Source of the DNA: Sulfitobacter sp. THAF37
Lineage (GTDB): Bacteria > Pseudomonadota > Alphaproteobacteria > Rhodobacterales > Rhodobacteraceae
Assembly (NCBI RefSeq): GCF_009363555.1
Contig: NZ_CP045373.1
Coordinates: 62,001-126,000, forward strand
Direction of reading: 5' to 3'
DNA: 64,000 nucleotides
Under the pieces are notes generated by a model. The model was not told where the DNA came from. It worked only from the letters and a program-made list of their open reading frames with translations, and ran no database searches. Position numbers and translations under genes: made by a program. Positions 38,192-60,888 of the stretch are shown here, piece after piece. Numbering within the stretch: the stretch's first letter is position 1; each line of letters begins with the position of its first letter.

Positions 38192-38210
38192 TGAAAGACC
38201 AACACCAAAA

Positions 38211-38882: not shown

Positions 38883-38886
38883 TCCC

Positions 38887-39618: not shown

Positions 39619-39620
39619 TC

Positions 39621-42031: not shown

Positions 42032-42170
42032 GCTCAATAAAGCGCGACGATTGCGGCCATTCGCTGCGCACCGTATCAACTTACACTACGCGGGACATTT
42101 CAGACCTTCGCTGCACGTGCGCGAATGTCCTGTCCAGCGAACCGTTCAACAAACGGTCCTTTTTGGAAGG

Positions 42171-42989
42171 CTATGTTCGTCTAGCTAAAAACCAAAGAAC
42201 CAAACAACAGAGTGCCGGCGCTATGTACCATATTTCTGGGCCGTCCAAAAGTTCTAAAAAACGTGTCGGAAAGTCTTTGTCCGGCTGCAAGGCGGGGTCA
42301 AAAAATACGGTCCCAAAATTCCGATCCATACTTATGAATCCCAGAAAATAGCTTAGCCGTGAGATGAGCATCCAGGTCATCCAGATCATCAAAGTGGCGA
42401 AACCTATTCGCACGACCTTTGAAAAGGTGGAGCGCAGTCGATTAAATCCGGCAATTGTAAAACCGAACAGGCTTAGGGCTAAGAGTATCGCAACTACCAC
42501 CTTGTTCATTTGTAGCGAATTAAGGATCGCATCAATTTGATAAGACGAGGAGGATGACGACAAAGGTGGATAAAGCGTCCAGCCATCTGGCGCGACAGGA
42601 CCCGATAACGATGAGGGGAAATTTATACTGGTGATTGGAACGGCGAGGTAACATGCAAGAGCTAGCCACATCGCCGCAACGACCCATGCCTTGAAATGAA
42701 GTGGCATGGTTTTTTGTAGGCGCATCACAAGCACTGCGAGGAATGCGGGAATCAGAGCCAAGTAAACTAGGAATGCCAAAGGGGCGCGCGAAATCGCGCT
42801 GGCTTGATCAACATTTGCAAAGCAAAATGTTAACTGGCCCTCAGCGCAAATATACTGAAGCCCAGGGGCCATCAACTCCATCCGTAGGATCATCTGCAAC
42901 GCTAAAAGTGCAAGCCCGACAAAAAGGGCAACTACCGTAAATATTGCTGCAGGGATCTTCGCATTCCTGCGGACATCGGCGCTCATCAT
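42171..42989 (-). CDS. polytopic membrane protein of unknown function
   Basis: The 272-residue protein has about six hydrophobic helices (AIFTVVALFVGLALLALQMI near the N-terminus, FLVYLALIPAFLAVLVMRL, WVVAAMWLALACYLAVPI, VAILLALSLFGFTIAGF, then two more near the C-terminus) and a loop with a run of Ser. AAGGA precedes tandem ATGs at 42989 and 42986. No family recognised. It faces the VirB operon and is cut off from the transposon at 43293 by an intergenic spacer. Confidence 0.6.
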   Translation of the reverse strand: MMSADVRRNAKIPAAIFTVVALFVGLALLALQMILRMELMAPGLQYICAEGQLTFCFANVDQASAISRAPLAFLVYLALIPAFLAVLVMRLQKTMPLHFKAWVVAAMWLALACYLAVPITSINFPSSLSGPVAPDGWTLYPPLSSSSSSYQIDAILNSLQMNKVVVAILLALSLFGFTIAGFNRLRSTFSKVVRIGFATLMIWMTWMLISRLSYFLGFISMDRNFGTVFFDPALQPDKDFPTRFLELLDGPEIWYIAPALCCLVLWFLARRT

Positions 42990-43292
42990 TCCTTAAACTT
43001 CCATGTCGTTGACGTGCTCTGATCACTGATGGTCGATGCACTGTTTCTCTTCAAGTAGATTTAAATTCTGCCTTGTTCCAAAAACCCTCCTTTTTGGCAC
43101 AACCACGAAACTCCTCGTTCGATGCTGCCTTAAACCCCGTTCAAAACCCAAGTGGTTGTTGAACGTTTTTGCCTCCACCGGGATAGCAGACTTTAGCTGC
43201 ATCGCAGAAATTCGGCAAAGAGGGCTCAATCAGAACCACCGCTGCGCCGCGTACGCAAGTCCGGTCTGGATTGGCGAACGGCACATGCCGTC
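42990..43292. other. intergenic region left of the first tni element
   Basis: No gene supported. It carries the 13-mer GCAGACTTTAGCT (43186-43198) also seen at 26719, followed by AAGTCCGGT (about 43256-43264). The right border is the abrupt start of the transposon terminal repeat at 43293. Confidence 0.5.
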
Positions 43293-43317
43293 TGTCACTG
43301 TACCCTAATTAATCAGA
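43293..43317 (+). repeat. left terminal inverted repeat, tni element 1
   Basis: Begins TGTCACTGTACCCTAATTAA and pairs with 46931-46955 in inverted orientation, with a single mismatch at position 15. Confidence 0.9.
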
Positions 43318-43349
43318 TTCTGCGGATTGGAAGCGTTTTCGGCAGATTC

Positions 43350-43369
43350 TGTACCCTTAATTGCAATAT
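43350..43369 (+). repeat. internal left-end repeat, tni element 1
   Basis: TGTACCCTTAATTGCAATAT shares its TGTACCCTTAATT core with the repeats at the right end. It is probably a second transposase-binding site. Confidence 0.7.
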
Positions 43370-43386
43370 ATCCACAGGGCGCTGCG

Positions 43387-44325
43387 TCAGTGGCTGACAC
43401 AGCTTTGGCGCTTCCAGATTGCATCGGCTCGTGCCAGAAGCGCTTGACGATCTGCATCGGCACCGAGCTCGGAGATGGCCTGACGGGCAGCGTCTAGGGC
43501 CTGCGCAGACGTCTTTTTGGGCGACGTCGCCCTGGCAGATCGGTCAACGGGACTGCTTTCCTGCCGACGTCTTCGCGGAAGTCGCATATCGAGGTTCATC
43601 GACAGCTTGCGCACCTTCTCAATCAAACGTCTGCGCTGAGGAAAGGCGCGTCGGAGATCCCAGAATGCTTGTTCATTTCCGCGCAGCAAGATGGCCACTC
43701 CCAATAATGGACGGGCTGAGCAGACATCGACAGCTGCGAGTGCTATTGACCGCTCCAGTTGACACCGCGACGTGAGTGGCACGCTGTATACCAACTCAAG
43801 TACTTGTAAGAGGCACAGCGTATGGCTGATCCGCTGCATGTGCCTCAGATCGGCGGCGGCAACCGCCGTCTTCAGCAATGCCGCGCCCCGAGCGGCGCGG
43901 ACACGTAGCCTGTTTGATAGACCATCGGCCGGATGCCTCGCCACAAGAGGTCGACCACAGTTTTCGCAAGTCAGCGACCAGGCGAAGCGCCAGTGGCGCA
44001 GGACCAGTCCCGAGGTTTGTTTCGAGCAGTTTGCGCAACTTTGGAAGTCATCGCTAGATACGCATTGAGCGGGATGATGCGTCGTGTCCGGGAGGGTCAT
44101 GGCCGCGATCTCATCCCGGGTCTGCTGAACCGCCGGACATAGCCGAGCCCAGTTCACATGCCCAAGGTCACCCGCATGCTCCGGCACCCTGCCCTGCCCC
44201 AAACCGAGATAGCCGCAAAGCTCTTCGACGGAACAATGATTGGCCCGGGCCAACCGCCCGATCCAGCTCGAGAGAAGCTCGTCGGATACCGGTGGCGGTC
44301 GACGCGGCAATGGGTTCACGGTCAC
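43387..44325 (-). CDS. tniQ: TniQ family transposition protein
   Basis: A 312-residue protein. The N-terminus PVSDELLSSWIGRLARANHC is the TniQ entry motif, and a Cys-X2-Cys pair of pairs (SCANCSKQ...TCENCGRP) makes the zinc finger. The rest is helical with a basic end. TniQ/TnsD-type proteins take part in target choice. The GTG at 44325 overlaps the tniB stop as GTGA, the same arrangement as in element 2, and is preferred to 44376. Confidence 0.85.
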   Translation of the reverse strand: MTVNPLPRRPPPVSDELLSSWIGRLARANHCSVEELCGYLGLGQGRVPEHAGDLGHVNWARLCPAVQQTRDEIAAMTLPDTTHHPAQCVSSDDFQSCANCSKQTSGLVLRHWRFAWSLTCENCGRPLVARHPADGLSNRLRVRAARGAALLKTAVAAADLRHMQRISHTLCLLQVLELVYSVPLTSRCQLERSIALAAVDVCSARPLLGVAILLRGNEQAFWDLRRAFPQRRRLIEKVRKLSMNLDMRLPRRRRQESSPVDRSARATSPKKTSAQALDAARQAISELGADADRQALLARADAIWKRQSCVSH

Positions 44326-45179
44326 CCGAACTCCGCGATGGGTTGGCGCGGAATGCTCCAAGCATGCTTCGCCCATACCGGCTGCCAGGCCTGAACGGCC
44401 TCATCGGTGATCCGCTCCTCACCCGTCTCGATCGCATCGATGGCCAAGGACTTGATCATGATGAACACGCGCGAGGTCACACCGCCCGTCACTTTCAGGA
44501 TTGTCCGAAGCGACGCAACCGTGAGGCCCGACCGCTGCTCAAGTGCCATCGCGGCAATCAGCGTTTGGATGAGCCGAGAGAACTCCACGTCGTCCTCCCA
44601 GAGCGGCAGGTAGTGTTCGTCCAGGCGACGGGCCAGTTGGTCGTCACCGCGGACGGCCTCGAGCGCTTCGTTGACACCGAAAACGACAAGCGAGGCACAG
44701 AGATCGTTGGCCAAGAACCGCAGCATGTTCAGGAACCGGCGTTGCTCCCGGTAACTACCGGCAAGCAGATTGTGCACCTCGTCGATCATCAGCATCTTCA
44801 GGTCCATATCCCGAAGATGACTGAGCGCGCGGACCTCAAGTTCGGACACGGTATGCCGCCCCCACATCGGCGCCCCGATCGTCGAAAGGATGTGCTGGTA
44901 GAAGCGTCGCTCGTCCGGCGCTGGCGGCGCCTGAACCAGCAGGATGGGGGTCTTCGTGATGCCCAGTTCTGCGTTGTACTGCGTCGGATACTTGCTGGCC
45001 ATGCGCTTGGCGATCATCGTCTTGCCAATACCGGAACTGCCATAGACCATCAGGCCAGGCATCCGGCTCTGCTGCGGCATTTCCATCAGGGACGTCAATC
45101 GGTTGAGAACAATCGTGGCACGGTCGAATGCGATCCAATGATCGCTGCGGATGCGGTCAATTCTTTCTTCTGGGGTCAT
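44322..45179 (-). CDS. tniB: TniB AAA+ ATPase
   Basis: The 285-residue protein has Walker A YGSSGIGKTMIA (about residues 45-56) and Walker B KMLMIDEVHNLLAGSYREQR, followed by sensor-like ANDLCASLVVFGVNEA. TniB/TnsC-type ATPases deliver target DNA to TniA. The ATG at 45179 overlaps the tniA end by 23 bases; a TTG at 45191 is also in frame. About half of its residues match the TniB of element 2. Confidence 0.88.
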   Translation of the reverse strand: MTPEERIDRIRSDHWIAFDRATIVLNRLTSLMEMPQQSRMPGLMVYGSSGIGKTMIAKRMASKYPTQYNAELGITKTPILLVQAPPAPDERRFYQHILSTIGAPMWGRHTVSELEVRALSHLRDMDLKMLMIDEVHNLLAGSYREQRRFLNMLRFLANDLCASLVVFGVNEALEAVRGDDQLARRLDEHYLPLWEDDVEFSRLIQTLIAAMALEQRSGLTVASLRTILKVTGGVTSRVFIMIKSLAIDAIETGEERITDEAVQAWQPVWAKHAWSIPRQPIAEFG

Positions 45180-46785
45180 CAAACTCTTCAATCGGATAAG
45201 TGGGGAGGTCTGGGTTACCAGTGTCGATGGCGAACATTTCTCGGGACGGATCGCGGCGCGGCTGGTGCTTGGGAAGCCGCGTCTCGCGTTCGCTCTCCAG
45301 ACGGGCGGTCCTTGTCTTCTGACGCGCCGCCTCGGCCAGTCGTCTCTGCGCGTCGATCACCTGGAACAAGGCCTTCTCGTTGATCCGACCGCCATGCCTG
45401 TCTTGCCATTCCTTCCGCGCCCGACGACTTTCCCAAAGCGATATCCGAGGGTGGCTCAGATCCCGATACCGAGCCGGGATCATGCGGCCATCATTGACGA
45501 GAACCCAGACCTGCGACAGGTCCCGCGGGTCGTACTTCACCTGCACCTTGCCGCTGCCCCGTCCGACCAACGACGCGAAGGCATCACTCCAGTAGTGCAC
45601 CCCAAAGAGAGTGATCCCAGTGCGCCCGAGCTGGCGCAACTCAAAAGGCAGGAAGCTTGTCCGGAAGGCTTCGACATCGACAACCTGCCGCCCCGCAGTG
45701 TCTCCGCCCAAGTCAGCCCAAGCGGCCAGCGGCGTTCGCCCGAGGGCTTCGTGGCGGGTATTGTGGTAGCGGCAAATCTCCAGATGAAGCCAGTCCTCGA
45801 ACTCGGCCAGGGTCAGAGCCGCATGTTTCTCGCTGTCATAATCGCCCTTCTCGGCAGCGGAGGATTGCGTGGTCCCGGGCAAAACATGAACAGCCCCCAT
45901 GGCCGTTCCGATCAAACGTTCGATATGACCTCCGAAGTGCGTTGCACCAGGCGGGCGGTACTCGACGGCAATGCCCCAATCTTCGCAGGCCGATGAGAAG
46001 GCGTCGCTGTGGAACTCCTGCGCGTTATCGACATGGATCGCCTTCGGGATGCCGGATGTCGGCCAGACCAATTCTTCCAGCTTCCCTGGGACGTGGATCG
46101 ATTTCCGACGCACACAATGATCGAGGCAGAGCGCGATCGAAAGAACTGATGGTGCATCAAAGCTGACGAAGACCCCGAGAACGATCCGGGTTGCAACATC
46201 GATGGCTACCGTCAAATATGGGCGCGCAAGCGGTCGCCGATCCACGTGATCGACCAAAATGATGTCGGCCAAGGTGTGATCGATCTGAACAATTTCCAGT
46301 GGCGTTCCAACCGCAAGCCGGCCCGGACGTGCCGCAAAAGTCTTGTTCGCCTCCTTGGCACCACGGCGCTTTCTAACAATCTCTTTCTCGTCCATTGCAT
46401 CGAGCCGAGCTTTCAGCGTTTTTCGTGCCGGTGGCTGGAAGCCCTTTGCCTCGCATTCCGAACGGATCTCACGCCAAATTCGCAGAAAGCTGGAGCGTTC
46501 GCGGACCAGATAATAGCGCCGTAGGCGTTCATCGATGAGGTCTTCGACTTCTCGCGCGATCCGTTTCGACCCCGGTTTCGGCCCCCGGCGACTGAGTTCC
46601 AGTGCTGCGGCCCGCCCATCGTTCTCGCGCAAACGGCGGTAAAGCGACCAGGTGTGGCTCTTCGCCAAACCTAGTTCCCAAGCAGCATCTCCGATTGCCG
46701 CACTGATCGGCTCACCCTTCTTCTCAAGTTCCAGGATCGGACGGAGGACTGCTGCTCGATGTTTTGCAAGACGCTCGCTGACCAC
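45157..46785 (-). CDS. tniA: TniA DDE transposase
   Basis: A 542-residue Mu/TnsB-type transposase starting at GTG. An N-terminal HTH region (LRPILELEKKGEPISAAIGD) is followed by the integrase core: first Asp in EIVQIDHTLADIILVD, second Asp in AIHVDNAQEFHSD and Glu in FGGHIERLIGTAMG. The mu-type C-terminal beta barrel and basic tail follow. All three catalytic acids are present, so the enzyme may be functional. Confidence 0.9.
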   Translation of the reverse strand: MVSERLAKHRAAVLRPILELEKKGEPISAAIGDAAWELGLAKSHTWSLYRRLRENDGRAAALELSRRGPKPGSKRIAREVEDLIDERLRRYYLVRERSSFLRIWREIRSECEAKGFQPPARKTLKARLDAMDEKEIVRKRRGAKEANKTFAARPGRLAVGTPLEIVQIDHTLADIILVDHVDRRPLARPYLTVAIDVATRIVLGVFVSFDAPSVLSIALCLDHCVRRKSIHVPGKLEELVWPTSGIPKAIHVDNAQEFHSDAFSSACEDWGIAVEYRPPGATHFGGHIERLIGTAMGAVHVLPGTTQSSAAEKGDYDSEKHAALTLAEFEDWLHLEICRYHNTRHEALGRTPLAAWADLGGDTAGRQVVDVEAFRTSFLPFELRQLGRTGITLFGVHYWSDAFASLVGRGSGKVQVKYDPRDLSQVWVLVNDGRMIPARYRDLSHPRISLWESRRARKEWQDRHGGRINEKALFQVIDAQRRLAEAARQKTRTARLESERETRLPKHQPRRDPSREMFAIDTGNPDLPTYPIEEFDDPRRKN

Positions 46786-46834
46786 GCCAATCCCTGCCCT
46801 ATTCCTGTCAGCACTTATCCACAGAACTGACCGT

Positions 46835-46893
46835 ATGCTAATAAAGGGTACAGTATGGCAATTAACGGTACAATATGAAAATTAAGGGTACAT
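46835..46893 (+). repeat. transposase-site array at right end of tni element 1
   Basis: Three 19-bp units at 46835, 46855 and 46875 share an ATG-N3-AATNAA-GGTACA pattern at exact 20-bp spacing. A fourth copy is the terminal repeat itself. This matches the multiple TnsB/TniA sites of Tn7-type ends. Confidence 0.8.
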
Positions 46894-46930
46894 CGTGCCG
46901 CTGAAAACAAACGATAATTTTAAAGGCAAT

Positions 46931-46955
46931 TCTGATTAATGAGGGTACAGTGACA
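46931..46955 (-). repeat. right terminal inverted repeat, tni element 1
   Basis: Read on the minus strand it begins TGTCACTGTACCCTCATTAA, matching the left end at 24 of 25 bases. The next base begins truncated oxidoreductase coding sequence. Confidence 0.9.
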
Positions 46956-47808
46956 ACTTGGCCGGCAGGTGGTCGACCTGCTGGTTCAGGCAGGTGCCGG
47001 GCCGGTCATCGCGATCTCGCGCACTCCCGACAAGCTTGCCGATCTGGCGGGAAAAAGAGTCGAGGCGCGCGAGGGCGATTTCAACGACCCGGCTTCTCTT
47101 GAAGCAGCCTTCGCGGGCGGCAAGCGTCTCCTCATCATCTCCACCGACGATCTGGAGCCGGGCAAGCGGCTCGCAGCTCATTCCAATGCGATTGCTGCGG
47201 CCAAGACGGTAGGTATCGACCACATCGTCTATACCTCCTTCGCAGGCCCAGTCGCGGAAAGTCCAATCGGATTCGCTCAAGACCACGAAGGGACCGAGAA
47301 GCTGATCACGGAAAGTGGGGCGGATCATACGATCCTGCGCAACAATATGTACACCGACTTTCTGTTGATGGGCGGCCAGCAGAGCGTCGCCATGGGCACG
47401 CATTTCTCCGCCGCAGCAGATGGCAAGACCGGATATGTGACACGCGCGGATTGCGCCCGTGCCGCAGCCGCGGCGCTAATGAAAGCTACGGGAAGGGAGA
47501 CCCTCGATATCACCGGGCCGGAGACGGTCAGCCAGGCCGAGGTCGCGGCGATCTTGTCCGAAATTGCGGGTAAGGAAATCCCCTATGTCGCCCTGCCCGC
47601 CGAGGATCTGGTGCAGGCGATGATCGCAAATGGACTGCCGGAGTTCATGGCGAGGGTCTTTGCCTCCTTCGACGAAGCAATCGCGCAGGGCTATCTCGAT
47701 GTGGCCAGCGGCGATCTCGAATCGCTCACCGGCAAGCCCGGACAGTCGGTGGCCGATTTCCTGGCCGCTAACCGCGCGGCGCTTCTTCAGGCGCCGCAGG
47801 AACAATAA
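46956..47808 (+). pseudogene. NAD(P)-binding oxidoreductase (NmrA/QorB-like), 5'-truncated by the transposon
   Basis: The frame reads LGRQVVDLLVQAGAGPVIAI directly from the transposon end, so the gene has lost its start and the Rossmann GxxGxxG strand (about ten residues). The remainder is intact: DFNDPASLEAAFAGGKRLLI, then VYTSFAGPVAESPIGF and TYVT-type substrate segments to a normal C-terminus. A GTG at 46969 would give 279 residues but without the cofactor loop. It belongs with QorB-like quinone reductases or azoreductase-like NmrA proteins. It is followed directly by a GST gene. Confidence 0.75.
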
Positions 47809-48455
47809 TGCTGGAAAATGTCATGAGGCTTTACAACGCGAACTTCTCACCGAATGCGCTGCGTGTACGGGCGGTGGCGCACGAACTGGGCGTGGAACTC
47901 GAAATCGTCGAGGTCGACATCCGTGCCGGGGACAACCGCGCGGCGGAATTTCTTGCCCGCAATTCAAATGCAAAGGTGCCTGTTTTGGAGGACGGGAATT
48001 TCGTGCTCTGGGAGTCCCGGGCGATCTGTGCCTATCTGGCCGGGATCCGGCCCGAGGCAGGGCTCTATCCTGATGGCCTCAAGACGCGGGCCCTCGTCGA
48101 TCAGTGGGCCTGGTGGCAAGCCATCCACCTAGGCCCGGCGATGCAGAAGTTGTCCTTTGAGCTGTTCCTCAAAGAGAAATTCGGCATGGGCGATCCTGAT
48201 CCTACTGTGGTCGAAGCGGAACGGAAAGCCACCGATCAGTTCCTTGCCGTTCTGGAAACCGGACTCGACGATAAGGATTGGATTGCAGGCGCACTCAGCC
48301 TTGCCGACTTCTATCTGGCGACCACATTCATGTATCGCGACCAAGCGGGGATTTCGCTGGACGAATTCCCCAGAATCGCGGGCTGGATCGGCCGGCTTGA
48401 AGCGCGTGACAGCTGGCAGAAGGCCGTAGCACCGCTTCTTGCGCTCTTCGCCTGA
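47808..48455 (+). CDS. glutathione S-transferase family protein
   Basis: In this 215-residue protein, the N-terminal thioredoxin-like domain reads MRLYNANFSPNALRVRAVAH and KVPVLEDGNFVLWESRAICA, the latter holding the glutathione-binding ES pair. A helical C-terminal domain contains WIAGALSLADFYLATTFMY. The ATG at 47808 overlaps the preceding stop; an ATG at 47823 is an equally good start. It may act with the neighbouring oxidoreductase on an electrophile. It ends just before transposon relic sequence. Confidence 0.87.
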   Translation: MLENVMRLYNANFSPNALRVRAVAHELGVELEIVEVDIRAGDNRAAEFLARNSNAKVPVLEDGNFVLWESRAICAYLAGIRPEAGLYPDGLKTRALVDQWAWWQAIHLGPAMQKLSFELFLKEKFGMGDPDPTVVEAERKATDQFLAVLETGLDDKDWIAGALSLADFYLATTFMYRDQAGISLDEFPRIAGWIGRLEARDSWQKAVAPLLALFA

Positions 48456-48479
48456 CATCGCGCTCGCCGCGATGATTGA

Positions 48480-48800
48480 ACGATCTGCATCACGTCCGGC
48501 GATCGGCGCGCTATCAGATTTAGACATGAGCAGGAAGCGTCGCATGACAGAAATTAGCCGCAGACAGCCGCGACAACCAACCTGACAAGAGTTCCTCCGG
48601 AAGCAATGCGGCGGTTTTGGGATGTAGATGCTGTGTCTCATCCCGATCTTTAGAGTTTTCGCGCGGAGTGTATTCATCAGGTCCGATAACTCAGCATCCG
48701 TCGCGCCAATTGAGCACGTGCCGTTCGTCCAAGACAAAGACTGATCTCACGGCCTCCGCGAGCGGGATGCCGAGCACAGTGTAACCGTGCAGGACAGCTA
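48480..48800 (-). pseudogene. decayed tniB-tniQ remnant of a third tni element
   Basis: On the minus strand, 48550-48640 reads KTAALLPEELLSGWLSRLSA, close to the TniQ N-terminus of element 2 (LPDELLSGWLSRLAAANY). About 48655-48760 reads AEAVRSVFVLDERHVLNWRD, then in another frame DAELSDLMNTL, matching the TniB region with RRLDEHHLPNWRDDAEFSDM. Stops follow TniQ residue 30, and the segment between the two pieces is shortened. The order tniB then tniQ is kept. Not expressed as a protein. Confidence 0.7.
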
Positions 48801-48806
48801 TGCGGG

Positions 48807-48831
48807 TGTCACTGTTCCCTTAATTCTTGGA
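48807..48831 (+). repeat. solitary tni-type terminal repeat
   Basis: TGTCACTGTTCCCTTAATTC resembles the element 1 terminal repeat (TGTCACTGT-CCCT core). It points rightwards, away from the relic to its left. No matching inverted partner was found in the window. Confidence 0.6.
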
Positions 48832-48987
48832 CGCTGATGTATGTGACCGTTCAGAACCGCGGGGTCATGCTGCCCTGAGCAAGGGTGGTGTAGGACTTAT
48901 GAAGCTCGCAATGTTGCCCGCAATAGGCTGCTTCGGGGCTTCATATTTCGTTCGTTCACTCAAACCGCTGTCGTTCCCAGGAACAAG

Positions 48988-49015
48988 AAAAAACCAGACC
49001 GCCGGAGCGGTCTGG
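48988..49015 (-). terminator. rho-independent terminator for the DUF736 gene
   Basis: On the minus strand CCAGACCGC (49015-49007), a 4-base loop and GCGGTCTGG (49002-48994) form a perfect 9-bp stem followed by six T (48993-48988). It lies 8 bases after the DUF736 stop. Confidence 0.88.
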
Positions 49016-49023
49016 CCGTTGGC

Positions 49024-49362
49024 TTAGGCGGCGTCTTTGGGGCCCCAAGGGATGACAGCCTGCAGGGACAGATCGTCCTGGTTTGCGGCCTTGCCGAGGT
49101 TGGCGTTGAAGCCGTGGTCGCGGATGGTCAGCGTGTAGTAGTCGGCGCCGGTCTCCTTGTTCTGCTTCTTCCAGATGCCGCCGCACTCGACCAGCTTGCC
49201 GCGCGGGGAGCGGCCGAGGACGCGGTGCGTGGGGGCCATCGGGTTCGTGCTCGCGACGGGTTCGACCGTGATGTCGAGGTCGAAGGTCAGGGTCGAGATG
49301 GAGCCGACGCCCTTGGCGGTTTCGATGTCGGTGCTGGTGAATTTAATGCAGTTCGTGGTCAT
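49024..49362 (-). CDS. DUF736 family protein
   Basis: A 112-residue plasmid/ICE-associated protein: VEPVASTNPMAPTHRVLGRS, ECGGIWKKQNKETGADYYTL and the ending DDLSLQAVIPWGPKD are typical. The ATG at 49362 follows AAGGAGAA; the longer frame to 49413 is not needed. DUF736 genes usually sit near conjugation and antirestriction genes in alphaproteobacteria, but none of those flank it here. Confidence 0.82.
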   Translation of the reverse strand: MTTNCIKFTSTDIETAKGVGSISTLTFDLDITVEPVASTNPMAPTHRVLGRSPRGKLVECGGIWKKQNKETGADYYTLTIRDHGFNANLGKAANQDDLSLQAVIPWGPKDAA

Positions 49363-50350
49363 TGCTCTTCTCCTTGTTTGCATTGCAATGATGGTCACCT
49401 TGCAGCTGGCCAAGGCCCGGCCACACCGAAGGCGAAGCGTAGCGGAGAGGGGCAGGCGCCGGTCTTTTTGGCGCGCGAGGAATGACCCGTAGGGTCAGGG
49501 GAAAAAGATCGGCGACAACCTTTGTGGACGGGACGACAGCTGCGACCAGCATGTCATGCAGAGCAACACATCGGGAGAAGTGCGGTGGCCGCGAAGGACA
49601 CCCAGGTGAACAGCCGATGAAACTGCCGGGGGCGGTGTCCTTTCTGCCCTCTCACCCCGAGCCGCAGCCGGACGGGTTCGCGCTTTGCCGAGCCTTGCCT
49701 AACGTGGCGCGACCGCTTGCCCGTGGTAAGTTGGTCGAGTGAGGTGCCATCTGGCTGAGCGATTTCAAGCAGACCGCCGTGGCATCTGCACCGGGCGCGG
49801 GTCATCCCGATTTCGGACCAACCCTCTTCGGCATCCCAATAGTTTGCGATTTTTTACATCGCGTCCAACACCGACCCTCTGCCAGCTTTGGCCAGAGCGA
49901 TCCGGCGGTTGTCGAAACTCCTTTGCGGTCAATGATGGCAGAACAGCATGTCCGGCAAAGCGAGGACTAACACCGGCTGACACGGGAAAAACGAGACTAT
50001 TGAAGCGACCCGCCCCGCCCCAGCGACCGTTACCGAATGGCCGAGATGAAGCGTTGCCACGACCATGCGACGGCTGGTCGGGCTGGCTCCGGAGGAGACG
50101 GCACGGCCAGCGGTACGTCGCAGGGAGAGGCAGCGTTTCAGCTCGGGGAGGGCGGCTGCATGCAGCCGACCGAGTAGGGCGCGGTCCTGACCAAAGGGCA
50201 GGATGATTTATGGACAACAAGCACCCACGAATTCCGTTCGCCGATTTGATGAAACTAACCCCGACTCGGAATGTAACAGATACGACCTTTGGCCTTCTTC
50301 AGCCATCCGAGTTGTCGTGCGCGTAGCTGCCATATCGCGTAGGACGCCCG

Positions 50351-50440
50351 TAATGCGGGCCAATGAGCCGAAAGGTCTCGATTGGCGACTCGTGATCGAT
50401 GGTGTTCTCTGGAAGAGGCTATTCCGCACAGGCATCGGGA
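50351..50440 (+). pseudogene. possible IS5-type transposase N-terminal remnant
   Basis: Reads RANEPKGLDWRLVIDGVLWK, which has the pattern of the conserved N-terminal segment of IS5-family transposases (Arg-Val-Ile-x-Gly-Ile-Leu/Phe-Trp). Nothing recognisable precedes or follows it. Weak evidence. Confidence 0.25.
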
Positions 50441-50548
50441 AGGATTCCTGCAACCGAGAGCAGTAGGAAGCTGCCATGAACCCGCTCATATTGCCACTGA
50501 CCTACTCTCACCACGTTAATTAAACCCGCTTATCTTAGCCTACCCACT

Positions 50549-50576
50549 ATTTAAGCGAAGCCCGTATTGCTTAAAT
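50549..50576. promoter_or_regulatory. inverted repeat upstream of fic
   Basis: ATTTAAGC (50549-50556) and GCTTAAAT (50569-50576) are perfect 8-bp arms 12 bases apart, ending 24 bases before the fic start. A candidate operator overlapping the promoter. Confidence 0.45.
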
Positions 50577-50600
50577 AAAAGAGGGGCATCATAGTGAGCT

Positions 50601-51782
50601 ATGACCGATTCAGACCCCAACCAACGCCTTGGCCGCTTTGTCGAAACCCCCGTTGCAGGAGAGACGGTCCGCGCCTTCGTACCACCTCCCCTGCCTCCAG
50701 TCCCAACAATCGACGTACTGGGGCTTCTCGACCGACTCAGCCTCGCGGAGCGCGCCTTAGGGCGGCTGGATGGCATCACGATGCTTCTGCCGCGCCAGGA
50801 ACTGTTCCTCTATATGTATGTCCGCAAGGAGGCCGTACTTTCCTCACAGATCGAAGGAACGCAATCGACGCTGACAGACCTGCTGCGTTTCGAGACCGAA
50901 GCACAGGCGGGCCAGCCAATCGATGACATCCGCGAGGTCTCGAACTACGTCGATGCCATGATGTACGGGTTGGAGCGCCTCGAAGACTTGCCACTGTCCC
51001 TGAGGCTAATCCGCGAGATGCATGCGCGTTTGCTGCAAAGCGGACGTGGCGGCACCAAGGACCCCGGGGAGTTTAGGCGCTCCCAGAACTGGATCGGAGG
51101 GACACGTCCCGGTAATGCGCTGTACGTTCCACCCCCCGTCACGGAACTGGACAATTGCCTCGGCGCGTTTGAACGCTTCATGCACGACGACCAGTCCCGC
51201 CTTCCTGCTCTCATCAAGGCAGGACTGCTGCACGTCCAGTTTGAAACCATCCACCCTTTTCTCGACGGCAATGGCCGCATCGGCAGGTTGCTGGTAACAT
51301 TGTACCTCTGCGTCAATGGGGTGCTGCAAAAGCCTCTCCTCTATCTGAGCTTGTTTCTTAAGACGCATCGCGCTGATTACTATCGCCTGCTCCAGGAGGT
51401 TCGTGAGCATGGTCAGTGGGAGGCTTGGCTTGACTTCTTCCTCGCTGGCGTGGCGGATACGGCAAACCAGGCATTTGATGCCGCCACGCGGATTGTTGAC
51501 CTGTTTAAGGAGGATCGCGAGCGCATTTCAGCGCAAAGCGATCGCGCCGGTTCGTCACTGCGTATCCATGAACTGTTCCAGCAGCACCCCTTCCTGACCG
51601 CGAACCAACTGGTCGAGTACACCGGTCTGTCGGCTCCGACGGTGAACGCGGCCCTCGCCGACCTCCAACGCTTCGGAATTCTTGAGGAGATTACTGGGAG
51701 GAAGCGGGGGCGTGTTTTCAGCTATCGCGCCTATCTGACCATCCTCAGCGAGGGTACCGATCCGCTACCCACCACTGCCTAG
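50601..51782 (+). CDS. Fic family protein (AMP transferase type)
   Basis: A 393-residue protein with the complete Fic motif HPFLDGNGRIGR (residues 218-229) and, near residue 81, SSQIEG, the N-terminal inhibitory (S/T)xxxE(G/N) helix found in class II Fic proteins. These proteins transfer AMP to target hydroxyls, restrained by the Glu. The C-terminus has a winged-helix-like part (LTANQLVEYTGLSAPTVNAA), so it may bind DNA and regulate itself. No separate antitoxin gene is needed for this class, and none is seen. Confidence 0.88.
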   Translation: MTDSDPNQRLGRFVETPVAGETVRAFVPPPLPPVPTIDVLGLLDRLSLAERALGRLDGITMLLPRQELFLYMYVRKEAVLSSQIEGTQSTLTDLLRFETEAQAGQPIDDIREVSNYVDAMMYGLERLEDLPLSLRLIREMHARLLQSGRGGTKDPGEFRRSQNWIGGTRPGNALYVPPPVTELDNCLGAFERFMHDDQSRLPALIKAGLLHVQFETIHPFLDGNGRIGRLLVTLYLCVNGVLQKPLLYLSLFLKTHRADYYRLLQEVREHGQWEAWLDFFLAGVADTANQAFDAATRIVDLFKEDRERISAQSDRAGSSLRIHELFQQHPFLTANQLVEYTGLSAPTVNAALADLQRFGILEEITGRKRGRVFSYRAYLTILSEGTDPLPTTA

Positions 51783-51874
51783 AGAAAGGTGCGATGACAA
51801 TTGCCATTCGACCATGAATGTCAATCGTGGCTGGGTTGCTCCCCTACAAGTTCGGGCAATGGCTCGGCGTGCCC

Positions 51875-52203
51875 ATGACTCTCAAACTCGTTCCAATAGA
51901 TCATGGCGAACTCTGCCACGGCTGGGCGTGGTCCATCGATGATGAGGACGCACTCGCCGAACAGGTTGCACGTATAGTTCTCGGCCAATATCGCCACGTC
52001 GCCAAGATCCTGAGCGGTGCGGGGGTGCCGGGACCTGCTGCCAATGCCGAGCAGGCGACTGCAGCGATCAAACAACTGACGTTGGCGGAGGGTGACGATC
52101 CTTGGCACCGTGATGGCTGGCTGTTCCAGGCGATATCGTGGATCGCCGCGCACCAGCAGCCTGCCGCTTCGCTCACCCGGATGCCTCATATTCGCAAGGC
52201 CGA
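51875..52203 (+). pseudogene. unknown gene, 3'-truncated by tni element 2
   Basis: From the ATG at 51875 the frame reads MTLKLVPIDHGELCHGWAWS, then LAEQVARIVLGQYRHVAKIL and GDDPWHRDGWLFQAISWIAA, clearly protein-like. It ends HIRKAD at the transposon border; the 19 residues read after 52203 come from the element's terminal repeat. The gene has lost its 3' part. No function recognised. An earlier in-frame ATG at 51818 is possible. Confidence 0.6.
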
Positions 52204-52230
52204 TGTCGCGTTTCCCTTAAATCTGAGACG
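52204..52230 (+). repeat. left terminal inverted repeat, tni element 2
   Basis: Begins TGTCGCGTTTCCCTTAAATC; inverted partner at 55682-55708. A further unit TTTGCCTTTAATTGCGAGAT follows at about 52251. Confidence 0.8.
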
Positions 52231-52257
52231 AGACGCTTTCGGCATTGAGTTTTGCCT

Positions 52258-53048
52258 TTAATTGCGAGATTCGGCTGTCATGGGGCCTTTGCTTCTCGCG
52301 TGCCTTTGCGCGATGTGATCGACCGCGGCTAGCAATCGATGCTCCTTCTCGAAGGCGCGCAAGAGAGCAACCTTGGCAAAGTCGTCTATGGCGGAGCTGA
52401 CGATGGCTGCCTTAGCCAAGGATGAGATCGCGCGGCGGCGATTGCGGCAAGGCACAACAGCCTCACTTCCGGTCTGTGGCTCTGAAGAGCGAACAAGGGC
52501 TCCCCGTGGAAGGTTTTGAGTGACATGGCAAAGGTGACTGCGCGCATTGCGCGCCGAAGTTGCCTGGGGCCTTGCGATCGCGCGGCGCATTCAAGCATCC
52601 CTGCCCCGCGGCGCGCTCGGTATATCAGTTTGTCGGATATTGGTTCGTCACCGGCTTTGCCGAGGGTCTGCACAAGTCTCGTCCCGCAAACCCGACAGTC
52701 GAATGCCCAGGCCCGCCTCCAATGCCTGAGCGAAAGGCCCTCTCGGGAGCATTGCAGACAATGCTGGAATGGCATCTGGGCCGTCAGCGATGCTTCTCGT
52801 GGCGTCATTGCCGGAAAGGTCAAAGATCGCACGACATCTGGGGCGACCCGTGCGGCATTGGCAATCTTCTCTGCCGCAGCCGCGTCGATGCTGAAGTCCA
52901 AGGCGGTGCCATGCGTGGTATCGATTTCGATATGAGCCAGCAGTTCCGCGTCATTACAGTAGTTGGCCGCAGCCAACCGAGACAACCAACCTGACAACAA
53001 CTCGTCTGGAAGCGGTGCGACAGTCTTTGGCAGCGGTCGCAGCGTCAC
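52258..53048 (-). pseudogene. tniQ: tniQ of element 2, frameshifted near the C-terminus
   Basis: From a GTG at 53048 (GTGA overlap with tniB) the frame gives LPDELLSGWLSRLAAANYCN and the zinc-finger Cys pairs HCLQCSRE and DCRVCGTR, then ends early at 52386 with non-family sequence. From about 52425 a second frame continues AISSLAKAAIVSSAIDDFAK and ALLRAFEKEHRLLAAVDHIA to 52258, which lines up with the C-terminal part of the element 1 TniQ. A one-base indel in the GCC/GCG-rich stretch near 52425 explains it. Confidence 0.7.
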
Positions 53049-53926
53049 ACGCCGGTCTTCTCGAGCCGCCGATGGGCGTTCGCATGGCGCGACCAAACCG
53101 GCGTCCATTTTGCGATTGCGTCATCGGTGATGCATTCCTCACCGGTGACAATGGCCTCGATGGAAAGATCCTTGACTAGGGCGAAAATGCGCGAGGTCAC
53201 CCCACCGGTCAGTGCAAGTATCTGCTTGAGCGACTTGACCTTCAGATTGGATTTTTTGTTGAGGGGCATTGCCGCGATGAGTGTCTGGATCATATCCGAG
53301 AACTCGGCATCATCGCGCCAGTTTGGCAGGTGATGTTCGTCCAGCCGCCTGGCAAGTTGGATATCACCACGGATGGCATCGACAGCCTCGCTGACCCCGA
53401 GGCAGACCAGCGACACTTCGAGTTCATTGCTGAGATACCGCAGAACATTGAGAAAGCGTCGCTGTTCGCGGTGGGTCCCGGCCAAAAGGTTGTGAACCTC
53501 GTCGATCATGATCATCCGCAGGCCAAGGTCACGCAGTAGCGCGATGACACGGACTTCGAGGGAAGCCACATTTTGAGCGCGGGCGCTCAGTGCCGTCGCC
53601 GGGGCGCCAACGGCGGCCAGGATATGCAGGTAAAACCGCCGTTCATCAGGTGCGGGCGGCGCTTGCAACAGCAGAAGCGGTGTGCGGGTGATGCCTGATG
53701 CCGGATCGTATTCTGGTGCGTACTTGCGCGACAGGTTTCGGGCAATCATCGTCTTTCCAATCCCGGAGGCGCCATGCACAAGAAGCCCAGGCATACGGGT
53801 TTGTCGTGGCGCTTCGATCATGCCCTGCAAGCGGTCCAACACCTGTTCCGCCCGTGGAAAGCCGATCCAGATATCCGATTGAATGAGGGCGATCCGGCCG
53901 TCTTCTTCAGTTGTCCCTGCCCTCAA
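53045..53926 (-). CDS. tniB: TniB AAA+ ATPase (element 2)
   Basis: A 293-residue protein with Walker A HGASGIGKTMIARN and Walker B RMIMIDEVHNLLAGTHREQR. It starts at a TTG one base after the tniA stop; the open frame back to 54043 runs through tniA and is not credible. It resembles the element 1 TniB throughout, with insertions around ATALSARAQNVASLE. Confidence 0.86.
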   Translation of the reverse strand: MRAGTTEEDGRIALIQSDIWIGFPRAEQVLDRLQGMIEAPRQTRMPGLLVHGASGIGKTMIARNLSRKYAPEYDPASGITRTPLLLLQAPPAPDERRFYLHILAAVGAPATALSARAQNVASLEVRVIALLRDLGLRMIMIDEVHNLLAGTHREQRRFLNVLRYLSNELEVSLVCLGVSEAVDAIRGDIQLARRLDEHHLPNWRDDAEFSDMIQTLIAAMPLNKKSNLKVKSLKQILALTGGVTSRIFALVKDLSIEAIVTGEECITDDAIAKWTPVWSRHANAHRRLEKTGV

Positions 53927-53927
53927 T

Positions 53928-55562
53928 TCACCATCTCTCCACCTTGAACAATGGGCGCGATGTATCACCCGTATCGATCGCGCGCAGCCCTTCGGTTGAC
54001 GAGACGGCCGAGTTGGCGCTCTCCAATGTCCCTTTTCTTTCACGGGATCGGCGTTCGGCCTTCGTCAGGCCCCGGCTTTCAGTCTCGATCTGGCGTTGCT
54101 GGCGGATCAGCTCAGCCAGAACCAGCTCATTGGACCCGGACTTGCCAAGGGCCCGAGCCCTCCTCATGGCTTCGCGATATTCCCAGAGTGGCACGGGCGG
54201 AATTTCCAGATTTCTGTACCGCGCCTCAACAAATCGGCCATCGTCCAGTTCGACCCAGATCATTGAGATATCACGAGGATCGTAGCGAACGACCACCTTT
54301 CCATCCCCGCGCCCGATGTGGCCTGCAAGGGCATCGGACCAGTACCGTATCTGGAACAGATGGATGCCGTCACGCCTGATCTTGCGCAGTTCGCTCGGCA
54401 GGAAACTCACCTGAAAGGCTTCGATATCAAATGGGATATCGCCCGTCATTTGTTCTGAGAGCGCCTCCCATTTGGCAACGGGCGTGCAGCCAAGACTTGA
54501 ATGAATGCTGTTGTTGTAACGGCAGATTTCCAAAGCAAACCAACGATCGAATTCGCTCAACGTCATCGTGGCCATGCCTTCGGCATCATAGTCGCCCTTG
54601 GTCGTGACCGAGGATTGCGTTGTGCCCGGCAGGAGGTGAACCGCCCCCATCATCGTCCCGATCAAACGTTCGATGTGACCTCCGAAGTGAGGACTTCCCG
54701 GCGGTCGATAGACCAGATCGATCCCCCATTCCGCACAGGCCGACCGAAAGGCCCGCGACCGGAAATCGCGGCCATTGTCGACATGGACACTCTGCGGTTT
54801 GCCTTGTGCGGGCCAAGGAATATTGCACGCCAATTCCGTCAGAAGTTGCGCCTTGGGGGCAACCGCCTGTGTCAGGCAAAGCGCCACAGACAGACGCGAA
54901 GGAGCCTCAAGAGAAGTGTAGTATCCGGTTACCATCCGCGTTGCGATGTCGATCGACAGCGTGACCCAAGGCCGGCCAATTGCTTGGCGCTCAAAACTGT
55001 CGACAAGAATAATGTCTGCGGGCGTATGGTCGATTTGCACGATTTCCAGAGGATGATTTGCCTTGTTTTCACCCGTGACCGGCGCAAACTTCTGGCGGGC
55101 CGCCTTTGCGCCCTCTCGTGCCTTCGCAACTTTGCGGGCATTCATTGCATCCAGACGACGCTGAACCGTCCGCCGCGTCGGTGGCTGCAGGCCCTGTTGC
55201 CAGCACGCGCTGCGGATTTCTGTCACGACGCGCGACAGGCTCGAACGCTCCCGGCGCAAAAAATAACGGCGAAGGTGCTCTTCGATCACCGCTTCGACTT
55301 TGCTGGATATCAAGATCGTCCCGGTCGGGCGGCCCCGTTTCCGCGGCGTCAGAGCGCTGGTGCGCCCACCCTCTTCCGCCAACCGCTTTACCCAACGCCA
55401 GACCGTCGCCCTGCTGACACCAAGCTCCCAAACGGCGTCATTGATGCCACTTTCCAGACTGCCAGTCCCTTTGAGAAAGGCCTGAACAAGGGGACGCAGC
55501 ACCGCGGCCCTGCGCGCTTCTTCAGCACCAACGGCAACGTAGTCTTCGCCATCATCATCCAT
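53928..55562 (-). CDS. tniA: TniA DDE transposase (element 2)
   Basis: A 544-residue Mu-type transposase with a full catalytic set: EIVQIDHTPADIILVD, SVHVDNGRDFRSRAF and FGGHIERLIGTMMG. The N-terminal HTH includes GVSRATVWRWVKRLAEEGGR. The ATG at 55562 is chosen; a TTG at 55577 is also in frame. It is diverged from the element 1 TniA, so the two elements are distinct lineages and not recent duplicates. Confidence 0.9.
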   Translation of the reverse strand: MDDDGEDYVAVGAEEARRAAVLRPLVQAFLKGTGSLESGINDAVWELGVSRATVWRWVKRLAEEGGRTSALTPRKRGRPTGTILISSKVEAVIEEHLRRYFLRRERSSLSRVVTEIRSACWQQGLQPPTRRTVQRRLDAMNARKVAKAREGAKAARQKFAPVTGENKANHPLEIVQIDHTPADIILVDSFERQAIGRPWVTLSIDIATRMVTGYYTSLEAPSRLSVALCLTQAVAPKAQLLTELACNIPWPAQGKPQSVHVDNGRDFRSRAFRSACAEWGIDLVYRPPGSPHFGGHIERLIGTMMGAVHLLPGTTQSSVTTKGDYDAEGMATMTLSEFDRWFALEICRYNNSIHSSLGCTPVAKWEALSEQMTGDIPFDIEAFQVSFLPSELRKIRRDGIHLFQIRYWSDALAGHIGRGDGKVVVRYDPRDISMIWVELDDGRFVEARYRNLEIPPVPLWEYREAMRRARALGKSGSNELVLAELIRQQRQIETESRGLTKAERRSRERKGTLESANSAVSSTEGLRAIDTGDTSRPLFKVERW

Positions 55563-55600
55563 CGATATTTGCCGCAAATGTCTGTGAACCCTGTCTCAGG

Positions 55601-55653
55601 TTTAAGAGCAAAAATATCGGAATTAAAGGCAAAATCTCATATTTAAGGGCAAA
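55601..55653 (+). repeat. transposase-site array at right end of tni element 2
   Basis: Units TTTAAGAGCAAA, AATTAAAGGCAAA and ATTTAAGGGCAAA recur every 20 bases (55601, 55621, 55641). Their GGGCAAA core differs from the GGGTACA core of element 1, matching the difference between the two transposases. Confidence 0.75.
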
Positions 55654-55681
55654 GCACAGCTGTTGATTTCGTTGGATTTCT

Positions 55682-55708
55682 CATCTCACAATTAAGGGCT
55701 ACGCGACA
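55682..55708 (-). repeat. right terminal inverted repeat, tni element 2
   Basis: On the minus strand it begins TGTCGCGTAGCCCTTAATTG, partner of 52204-52230. Confidence 0.8.
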
Positions 55709-56380
55709 GTGGCCGAAGCGCAGGCGGCGGTCGCGGCTTCCGTCACCCTGCCCCCCGGCTATTCTTTGGGCTGGAGCGGGCAGTTCGAGTACCTTGAACG
55801 TGCGAAACAGCGGCTGGCCACAGTTGTGCCGTTAACGCTGGCGCTGATCTTTCTGCTGCTTTACCTGAACTTCCGCCGTCTGACGGAAACGCTGATCGTG
55901 ATGCTGTCGCTGCCCTTCGCGCTGGTGGGCGGCATTTGGCTCATGTGGTTCATGGGCTTCAACATGTCGGTTGCGGTGGCCGTCGGGTTTATCGCGTTGG
56001 CCGGGGTAGCGGCGGAAACCGGTGTGATCATGCTCATCTATCTCGATCAGGCGTTGAATGAAGCGCGTGACCGCGCAGACGGCCGGGATCTGACCCGCGA
56101 CGAGCTCTACGCTGCGATCATGGTGGGCGCAGTAGACCGCGTTCGTCCCAAGATGATGACAGTTGTCGCAATCATGGCCGGCCTGATGCCGATCCTTTGG
56201 GCGCACGGCACCGGATCCGAGATCATGCAGCGCATCGCCGTTCCAATGATCGGCGGGATGGTGTCGTCAACTTTGCTGACCCTGATCGTCATTCCGGCGG
56301 TTTATGCCATCATCAAAGGCTGGAGCCTCAAGAAGGCCGGTACAGCGCCTGATTTAGCCCTCGGGCAGGCCGCAGAATAA
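55709..56380 (+). pseudogene. CusA/CzcA-type RND metal efflux pump, C-terminal fragment
   Basis: The coding sequence starts exactly at the transposon border with [20 protein letters not shown] and [16 protein letters not shown], a stretch deep inside heavy-metal RND pumps. It continues with three to four membrane helices and the motif [18 protein letters not shown], to a normal end. Only about 220 of the usual 1,000-plus residues remain. The GTG at 55709 is really an internal Val codon. The missing N-terminal part is not in the window, so the pump is non-functional here. Confidence 0.85.
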
Positions 56381-56429
56381 GGGCAACAGCATTAAGGAGG
56401 CATTGGGAATCGAGATGAATGCTTGAAAC

Positions 56430-57671: not shown

Positions 57672-57766
57672 GAACAGAATTTTCCCACCGGTTGTTGCTT
57701 TTCTGTGGCAAACCGAATGCTAATTGACCGTGAGGCAACTCCCATTCTTTCGTCCGACGAATGTGC

Positions 57767-58207: not shown

Positions 58208-58221
58208 ACTATCAAACTCTT

Positions 58222-59526: not shown

Positions 59527-59534
59527 CAAAAACT

Positions 59535-60065: not shown

Positions 60066-60151
60066 ACTGCTCGGCTACCTCCTTAACGCTTGATTTTATT
60101 GCCTCAAAGCGTTGGGGCCGGGCGTGTTCGCCTCGGCCCCATTGTCTATCT

Positions 60152-60841: not shown

Positions 60842-60888
60842 TTGGTTTTCCTGTAGGTTTGGTTTGGTTGGAGTCGACGAAGGGCCGT

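What the first reader, a model, noticed from the sequence alone, without database searches (positions are those of the whole stretch)
43293..55708. Two diverged tni transposons plus a decayed third in 12 kb
Two complete TniA-TniB-TniQ modules with different terminal repeats (TGTCACTGTACCC and TGTCGCGT) and different internal sites (GGGTACA and GGGCAAA) sit 5 kb apart. A dead tniB-tniQ relic and a solitary end lie between them. This looks like a landing zone for repeated transposition by different lineages of one family.
Basis: partly seen in the sequence, partly recalled or inferred. Interest (0 to 1): 0.75.

Follow-up and report, generated by a model that had tools for sequence, protein, structure and literature searches.

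The report
Plasmid-splitting jumping genes without resolvase
Two compact marine-bacterial jumping genes seem to copy themselves without cleaning up afterwards, and one of them marks the exact places where a relative's single plasmid has been broken between two plasmids of this bacterium.

Summary
Two tniA-tniB-tniQ elements are real: E1 (43293-46955, three identical copies in the genome) and E2 (52204-55708, two). Both lack cargo and resolvase. They are distant relatives (TniA 48%, TniB 61%, TniQ 32%). E2's tniQ is frameshifted, so only E1 is complete.

Neither has a target-site duplication here; only 2 of 43 fetched copies do, against 9 of 12 IS66 elements. Yet the junctions, taken singly, share a 5-bp mark, NCNGN (43 of 84 flanks; 5 of 84 one step further out).

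E1's marks match across replicons. Four stretches of one Sulfitobacter plasmid, pDSM14862_e, align at 99.7-99.9% to contigs C2 and C7 and stop exactly at E1 ends, overlapping by the shared 5 bp. On C7 its sequence runs into E1 and resumes 31,273 bp further on; C2 carries the missing DNA. Two replicative transpositions, one fusion and one fission, explain all six E1 flanks.

So this is less a landing zone than a set of rearrangement scars; E2 lies in an exact 8.76-kb inverted duplication. Kind: resolvase-less, cargo-less relatives of Tn5053/Tn402, with miniature derivatives. Main rival: RecA exchange between copies.

The parts
43293..46955 (-). E1, compact Tni element (copy A): tniA-tniB-tniQ only, no cargo, no resolvase; 25-bp imperfect inverted repeats
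   Evidence: identical copies at C2:146809-150471 and C7:30023-33685
45157..46785 (-). E1 tniA, DDE transposase of the Mu/TnsB type
   Evidence: Pfam Mu-transpos_C 1e-15, rve 2.3e-7
44322..45191 (-). E1 tniB, AAA+ ATPase
   Evidence: Pfam TniB 1e-60
43387..44376 (-). E1 tniQ
   Evidence: Pfam TniQ 2.7e-11
46834..46892 (-). Three 20-bp-spaced subterminal repeats at the E1 right end (likely TniA sites); one more near the left end at 43350
   Evidence: (D5, I13); binding inferred
43288..43292 (+). ccgtc, E1 left 5-bp mark; its twin is at the E1 right end on C7
46956..46960 (+). acttg, E1 right 5-bp mark; cuts the start of an NmrA/SDR gene that is whole in copy B
12634..43292 (-). Plasmid arm, 99.9% identical to pDSM14862_e 24596-55254 (holds a virB operon), ending exactly at E1
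   Evidence: (C2:74634-105292), annotation of the relative
46956..64000 (+). Start of the 37,853-bp segment S (C2:108956-146808) lying between two E1 copies in direct orientation; runs past the window end
46952..55708 (+). 8,757-bp block present a second time, inverted and 100% identical, at C2:192230-200986; one edge is exactly the E2 right end
48506..48732 (-). Decayed tniQ/tniB relic
48807..48833 (+). Solitary end-like sequence, weak
52204..55708 (-). E2, compact Tni element of a second lineage
53928..55577 (-). E2 tniA
   Evidence: Pfam Mu-transpos_C 5.7e-21
53045..54043 (-). E2 tniB
   Evidence: Pfam TniB 8e-59
52386..53108 (-). E2 tniQ, N-terminal part; frameshifted relative to the two relatives compared
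52199..52203 (+). gccga, E2 left 5-bp mark (same in both E2 copies and in genome G153)
55709..55713 (+). gtggc, E2 right 5-bp mark in this copy (ccacc in the other); next to a C-terminal CzcA/CusA fragment at 55709-56380

Best explanation
E1 and E2 are compact transposons near the Tn5053/Tn402 branch of Tn7-like elements, reduced to tniA, tniB and tniQ. TniA joins the element's ends to a 5-bp staggered target with consensus NCNGN. With no TnsA to free the element and no resolvase to undo the intermediate, a jump ends as the raw replicative product: a fusion of two replicons, or within one replicon an inversion or a split. That leaves one extra element copy and moves each 5-bp mark to different copies. 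In this genome two such jumps explain all three E1 copies. (1) E1 flanked by gccgg and acttg, on a DNA circle S, jumped into gcgat on a plasmid and fused the two. (2) The copy then flanked by gcgat and acttg jumped into ccgtc on the same molecule and split it into C7 (gcgat-E1-ccgtc) and the C2 lineage (ccgtc-E1-acttg...S...gccgg-E1-gcgat). Shown: gene content, all flanks, the 5-bp overlaps, empty sites in related plasmids, arm geometry. Inferred: replicative chemistry, order of the two jumps, that S was a circle, that each daughter plasmid still works.
For: Only three genes in 3.66 and 3.51 kb. 2 of 43 copies with both ends and distinct flanks have matching 5-bp flanks, against exact 8-bp duplications in 9 of 12 IS66 elements with both ends located, Fisher p 1.7e-6. 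The flanks taken singly carry a palindromic mark: NCNGN in 43 of 84, against 5 of 84 when shifted by 5 bp; positions 6 to 11 carry 0.06-0.16 bits. E1 left mark of copy A = right mark of the C7 copy; left mark of the C7 copy = right mark of C2b. pDSM14862_e 24596-55254, 11807-24600, 55874-75754 and 55241-55878 align at 99.7-99.9% to C2 and C7 and stop exactly at E1 edges, overlapping by the two 5-bp marks; pTHAF33_c shows the same cut at 26485-26489. The ccgtc site is empty in three plasmids. The gene at gcgat, searched as two separate pieces, lies in one stretch in all 12 records listed in both searches (12 of 109 and 12 of 73 matching records listed). Cross matches of marks between copies: 3 of 36 left-right pairs within genomes against 10 of 1992 between genomes, p 0.0013; all pair types 4 of 66 against 27 of 4003, p 0.0014. 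The fourth is a 239/239 identical miniature pair 49 kb apart in opposite orientation that shares ACGGC crosswise, the pattern of a replicative inversion. None of nine miniature copies (239-347 bp), presumably too short for frequent exchange, has matching flanks. Three of four fetched relatives with 40-44% TniA identity keep an integrase/tyrosine recombinase gene beside tniA.
Against: Recombination between two E1 copies that each had their own duplication gives the same crosswise marks, so sequence alone does not prove replicative transposition. Two copies (L140, L143) do have matching 5-bp flanks, so clean insertions occur. Most within-genome left-right pairs do not match (33 of 36), which needs lost partners. 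A null that draws flanks from the observed pool gives 0.0048 for 'at least 2 cross matches among 3 copies'; the case rests on the 99.7-99.9% alignments. Segment S shows no RepC or RPA replication gene, so its being an independent circle is unproven. pDSM14862_e is not the exact parent: at 55241-55254 it lacks DNA that C2 has. The fourth fetched relative, an E. coli plasmid, has no recombinase annotated beside tniA in the stretch seen. The rearrangements around E2 and the doubled block are not reconstructed.
Confidence: 0.8

Rival explanations
1. RecA-dependent recombination between E1 copies. E1 was inserted cleanly, with duplications, at gcgat and ccgtc and elsewhere; later crossovers between copies shuffled the arms. 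E1 is only a portable stretch of homology.
For: Gives the same crosswise marks. Three 100% identical 3.66-kb copies are good substrates. Two clean insertions exist among the 43 copies.
Against: Needs several clean insertions plus two crossovers where two transpositions suffice. Clean insertions, its raw material, are 2 of 43 while IS66 elements keep theirs in 9 of 12. Miniature copies of 239-347 bp show the same loss, 0 of 9.
Confidence: 0.15
2. One reading: a hot region that attracted several tni lineages by independent simple insertions.
For: Two lineages and a relic lie within 12 kb.
Against: No matched flanks at either element; E2's region is an exact duplicate elsewhere; E1's edges coincide with plasmid-scale breakpoints. 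Whether such elements cluster more than by chance was not tested.
Confidence: 0.03
3. Assembly artefact: collapsed or mis-joined repeats produced the odd flanks.
For: E1 and E2 are exact long repeats, which assemblers confuse.
Against: The pattern is seen in 41 of 43 copies from many separate genomes and plasmid records; the 5-bp overlaps with empty sites are exact; the IS66 control behaves normally.
Confidence: 0.02

Closest known systems
Tn5053/Tn402 family (TniA, TniB, TniQ, TniR; definition recalled)
   Same: Gene set tniA-tniB-tniQ, ends beginning TGTC, subterminal repeats, 5-bp target; TniA about 40% identical to that of many enterobacterial plasmids (that those are Tn402/Tn5053 types is recalled).
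   Different: No tniR, no res, no cargo in E1 or E2; flanks of one copy seldom match (2 of 43).
Clade 3 of Tn7-like transposons (Benler et al. 2021, PMC8649781; passages seen)
   Same: TnsA absent; the paper infers replicative transposition for TnsA-less members and notes that those without a resolvase may rely on RecA or a resolvase in trans.
   Different: By the start of its abstract (cut) 96% of the elements found carry cargo; here cargo and resolvase are both absent and a footprint of unresolved products is seen.
IS26 / IS6 family (works like; properties recalled, papers seen as search listing only)
   Same: Cointegrates, direct copies around a captured segment, no duplication around single copies, plasmid reshuffling.
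   Different: Unrelated machinery: IS26 has one small transposase and 8-bp duplications (recalled), not TniABQ and 5 bp.
Phage Mu target preference (recalled)
   Same: 5-bp target with a symmetric pyrimidine/purine rule; TniA carries Mu-type domains.
   Different: Transposon, not phage; here C at position 2 and G at position 4 dominate (71% each, both strands counted).

Membership tests
Tn5053/Tn402 family | TniA (DDE/Mu-type), TniB (AAA+) and TniQ in one element | tested here: met
   E2's tniQ is frameshifted
Tn5053/Tn402 family | tniR resolvase and res site | tested here: not met
   Only three genes and short ends between the terminal repeats in E1 and E2; a res site as such was not searched for
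Tn5053/Tn402 family | About 25-bp terminal inverted repeats beginning TGTC | tested here: met
   E1 25 bp at 96%; E2 21 of 25; ends recur in relatives
Tn5053/Tn402 family | 5-bp target-site duplication | tested here: met
   5-bp overlap at empty sites; matched around one and the same copy in only 2 of 43
Tn5053/Tn402 family | Insertion near res sites of resolvase systems | not tested
   The ccgtc site lies within 20 bp of the end of a tyrosine recombinase gene; no systematic test
Tn7-like clade 3 (no TnsA) | TnsA absent, TnsB/TnsC/TniQ-type core | tested here: met
   TniA matches TnsB chains in PDB (best 4e-40)
Tn7-like clade 3 (no TnsA) | Position in the TnsB/TniA tree | not tested
   No tree was built; identities only
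IS6/IS26 (works like) | Single IS6-type transposase | tested here: not met
   Three genes of the Tni type
MITEs of this family | Both ends kept, transposase gone, more than one place | tested here: met
   347-bp form 347/347 identical in four copies of three genera; 239-bp form 239/239 in two

The most novel reading that the evidence does not exclude
A whole lineage of transposons lives without resolution: each jump obligately fuses, splits, inverts or deletes replicons. In marine Rhodobacterales these TniABQ elements and their miniature derivatives are a main engine that merges and re-divides large conjugative plasmids, and the 5-bp marks let the order of events be read back as a chain.
Probability: 0.5. 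Interest if true: 0.75.

Novelty: new variant of a known kind. Interest (0 to 1): 0.62.

Why it matters
It gives a natural test of what replicative transposition does when nothing resolves it, at base-pair resolution: two jumps that leave six junctions, all accounted for, and two contigs whose shared parent layout survives in relatives. It would explain part of the mosaicism of marine plasmids, offers a simple rule (match 5-bp marks across copies) for reading plasmid history, and supplies compact TnsB/TnsC/TniQ-type systems related to those used for guided insertion. Not found described in print within these limits: paper searches, of which I saw 20 of 23, 8 of 8, 12 of 32 and 2 of 2 rows (titles and starts of abstracts). 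Term look-ups found no 'TniQ' in the main text of the 2026 Sulfitobacter mobile-element paper PMC13386836 and no 'tni', 'Tn402' or 'Tn5053' in that of the Paracoccus mobilome paper PMC3281130; of both I saw passages only.

Tried and rejected
Simple insertion of either element was rejected by the flanks. A larger cargo transposon using E2's right end with a distant left end was considered for the 8,757-bp duplication; the left edge of the match is just where E1 cut the SDR gene (whole in copy B). I did not search further out for a second end. Genome G153 holds the same E2 flanks as copy B, so B looks older and A derived, but how the block was doubled is not settled. 'No duplication because the element makes none' was rejected by the 5-bp overlaps at empty sites and the NCNGN mark. 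That E2 moved by itself to its second place was rejected. Target preference for resolvase sites was not pursued. R751 stretches fetched for a Tn402 yardstick listed no tni genes and were not used. The TniQ of E2 matched no PDB chain at E 1.

Rows and passes: for three copies paired an internal end by mistake (3,456-bp rows), so the table is used; both give 2 of 43. Three Tni copies were skipped because a contig edge left too little flank. A 44th copy, the second E1 of Phaeobacter G2, also has unmatched flanks. A first pass with ends at most 2,800 bp apart found 10 pairs, 6 with exact duplications; the second pass up to 2,900 bp found 12 pairs, 9 exact, one with 1 mismatch, two without, and is the one used. 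L174, L175 and L204 gave no usable pair. In the cross-match test one search also printed 4 of 37 with p 8e-5, made by moving one miniature pair into the left-right class after seeing it; I use 3 of 36 and 4 of 66 instead. In some searches the second query began one base inside the flank, so the 4-base overlaps printed there stand for 5.
Full report
WHAT IS THERE. The window is C2:62001-126000 of an eight-contig genome. Between 43293 and 55708 lie two elements. E1 (43293-46955) and E2 (52204-55708) each hold tniA, tniB and tniQ on the minus strand and no other recognised gene. Their proteins are related but far apart: TniA 48%, TniB 61%, TniQ 32% identity. E2's tniQ is frameshifted and shorter than in the two relatives compared; G153 has the same short frame. 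A small tniQ/tniB relic lies at 48506-48732; the solitary end at 48807 is weak.

COPIES IN THE GENOME. E1 occurs three times, all 100% identical over 3,663 bp: C2:105293 (copy A, in the window), C2:146809 (C2b) and C7:30023. E2 occurs twice, but the second E2 is part of an exact 8,757-bp inverted duplication, C2:108952-117708 and C2:200986-192230, whose one edge is exactly E2's right end. The other edge is where E1 has cut the start of an NmrA/SDR gene that is whole in the other copy.

FLANKS. None of the five copies has matching 5-bp flanks. E1 copy A has ccgtc left and acttg right; C2b gccgg and gcgat; C7 gcgat and ccgtc (element orientation). So two of the marks occur twice, each time on different copies.

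RELATIVES. E1-like DNA is in 13 plasmid records, 8 covering at least 80%, three at 99% or more (Sulfitobacter alexandrii twice, Phaeobacter sp. G2). The block holding E2 matches 122 records; of the 40 listed, 39 show the E2 part only. Of 394 family genomes, 49 and 50 have some match to E1 and E2, many of them partial. Among the loci that I fetched, 43 copies with distinct flanks (the five of this genome included) have both ends with enough flank; 2 have a matching 5-bp pair (L140 and L143), and 3 more copies were skipped at contig edges. Nine of the 43 are miniature forms of 239, 307, 320 or 347 bp; none has matching flanks. The 347-bp form is 347/347 identical in four copies from three genera, and the 239-bp form 239/239 in two. 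This is what I fetched from lists, not a census.

IS THE LOSS OF DUPLICATIONS REAL? Two controls. First, IS66 elements: of 15 loci examined, 12 have both ends located; 9 of the 12 have an exact 8-bp duplication, one has a single mismatch, two have none. Fisher p against 2 of 43 is 1.7e-6. A narrower first pass gave 6 exact of 10 pairs. At least two of these IS66 copies lie on a chromosome-sized contig, so the comparison is not fully matched. Second, the flanks taken singly: over 84 distinct flanks, C stands at position 2 and G at position 4 in 71% each (both strands counted), on left and right ends alike, and positions 6 to 11 carry 0.06-0.16 bits. The full pattern NCNGN is met by 43 of 84, but by 5 of 84 one step further out. 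The junctions thus look like genuine 5-bp strand-transfer sites, while the two ends of one copy mostly belong to different sites.

MARKS MATCH ACROSS COPIES. Within genomes, 3 of 36 left-right pairs of different copies share the mark, against 10 of 1992 between genomes (p 0.0013). These are two E1 pairs of this genome and one pair on two plasmids of Limimaricola variabilis OXR-209. A fourth pair, counted as right-right because both ends of that miniature resemble E2's right end, is the 239-bp pair on contig G239:C7, 49 kb apart and in opposite orientation, sharing ACGGC. Over all pair types it is 4 of 66 within against 27 of 4003 between genomes, p 0.0014. Thirty-three of the 36 left-right pairs do not match.

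THE SPLIT PLASMID. pDSM14862_e of Sulfitobacter indolifex (123,234 bp) aligns to C7 as 11807-24600 (99.87%, ending at C7:30022) and 55874-75754 (99.93%, starting at C7:33686): the two sides of the C7 E1. It aligns to C2 as 24596-55254 (99.90%, 30,659 bp, ending at C2:105292, the left edge of copy A) and 55241-55878 (99.69%, ending at C2:150472, the right edge of C2b). The overlaps 24596-24600 and 55874-55878 are the marks ccgtc and gcgat. So on C7 this sequence runs into E1 and resumes beyond a gap of 31,273 bp (24601-55873), and C2 holds that DNA in two pieces against E1. Other parts of C7 and C2 do not match this plasmid. Ruegeria plasmid pTHAF33_c tells the same at its 26485-26489: 24 kb to one side are on C2 (98.2%), 25 kb to the other side on C7 (93.5%). 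Empty ccgtc sites occur in three plasmids. The gene at gcgat (annotated DUF2235; Pfam Tle1-like), searched as two separate pieces, lies in one stretch in all 12 records listed in both searches (12 of 109 and 12 of 73 listed), at 100% for both pieces in three. In S. indolifex and in S. pontiacus NZ_CP139702 both sites lie on one molecule, in the same order. By the annotation of these relatives, C7 and C2 have each inherited relaxase, VirD4 and VirB genes (with 76, 87), and RepC genes are found on both. Whether either plasmid works was not tested.

TWO JUMPS ACCOUNT FOR ALL SIX FLANKS. Start with one E1 flanked by gccgg and acttg on a molecule S. Jump 1 into gcgat fuses S to the plasmid and gives gcgat-E1-acttg and gccgg-E1-gcgat. 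Jump 2 of the first of these into ccgtc splits the molecule and gives gcgat-E1-ccgtc (C7) and ccgtc-E1-acttg (copy A). The result is C7, and a C2 lineage with copy A, the 37,853-bp S and C2b in direct order, as observed. Nothing is left over. The order of the jumps could be swapped. S shows no RepC or RPA gene; other replication genes were not sought.

WHY REPLICATIVE. No TnsA or resolvase is found in either element. Benler et al. (PMC8649781; passages seen) infer replicative transposition for TnsA-less elements of the clade that holds Tn5053 and suggest RecA or a resolvase in trans where a resolvase is missing. Of four fetched relatives with 40-44% TniA identity, three (Chelativorans, Sulfitobacter SK012, Novosphingobium) have an integrase/tyrosine recombinase gene beside tniA; the fourth, an E. 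coli plasmid, has none annotated there. Recombination between copies gives the same marks and is the main rival; it needs clean insertions first, which are rare here, and it fits the very short miniature copies poorly.

WHAT IT IS AND IS NOT. By gene set, ends and 5-bp target it belongs near Tn5053/Tn402; it fails the resolvase feature, so it is filed as a variant, not as a member in the strict sense. No tree was built. In effect it works like IS26 (recalled), with unrelated machinery. S. alexandrii plasmids unnamed4 and unnamed5 share the annotated segment right of E1 but not the left flank, perhaps another one-sided scar.

LIMITS. No experiment. The origin of the doubled 8,757-bp block is open. 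pDSM14862_e is not the exact parent, since C2 carries extra DNA at its position 55241-55254.

Noticed in passing
L121/L122 (G239:C7:107902-108140 and 58419-58657): Two identical 239-bp miniature elements in opposite orientation 49 kb apart share the 5-bp mark ACGGC crosswise: a likely 49-kb replicative inversion.
   Followed up: partly
L114, L116, L117, L118: A 347-bp miniature form of E2, identical in four copies in three genera; two of them share the left flank and differ on the right.
   Followed up: partly
L087 and L112 (G149:C3): Two E2 relatives on one contig share GCCGCG crosswise (6 bp, left of one and right of the other, seen by eye); not counted because the 5-bp windows are offset by one.
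   Followed up: no
L138:1861-2004: A 143-bp stub of an E2 left end directly before a full E2 in Sulfitobacter pontiacus, as if the element had jumped into or next to itself and deleted the rest.
   Followed up: no
L131:18487-24901: An E2 relative in Roseovarius indicus with an ISKra4 element annotated near each end.
   Followed up: no
C2:110963-111634, 156720-157390, 177187-177808, 198304-198975 and C7:15414-16170: A DUF736-gene stretch of about 0.6-0.76 kb repeated on both contigs at 90-96% identity, a ready substrate for recombination.
   Followed up: no
C1:1776037-1777062: A chromosomal distant TniA-like match (29% identity) within a 797-codon open frame.
   Followed up: no
L120:984: An E1-type miniature whose one end reads TATC instead of TGTC.
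   Followed up: no
window 50601-51782: A Fic-domain (SoFic-like) gene inside the duplicated block, so it is present in two exact copies.
   Followed up: no
L169, L078 (Phaeobacter sp. G2 CP104106): Two E1 copies in direct orientation around about 2.7 kb; all four flanks differ (tcagc/gctat, acgtc/cctgg).
   Followed up: partly
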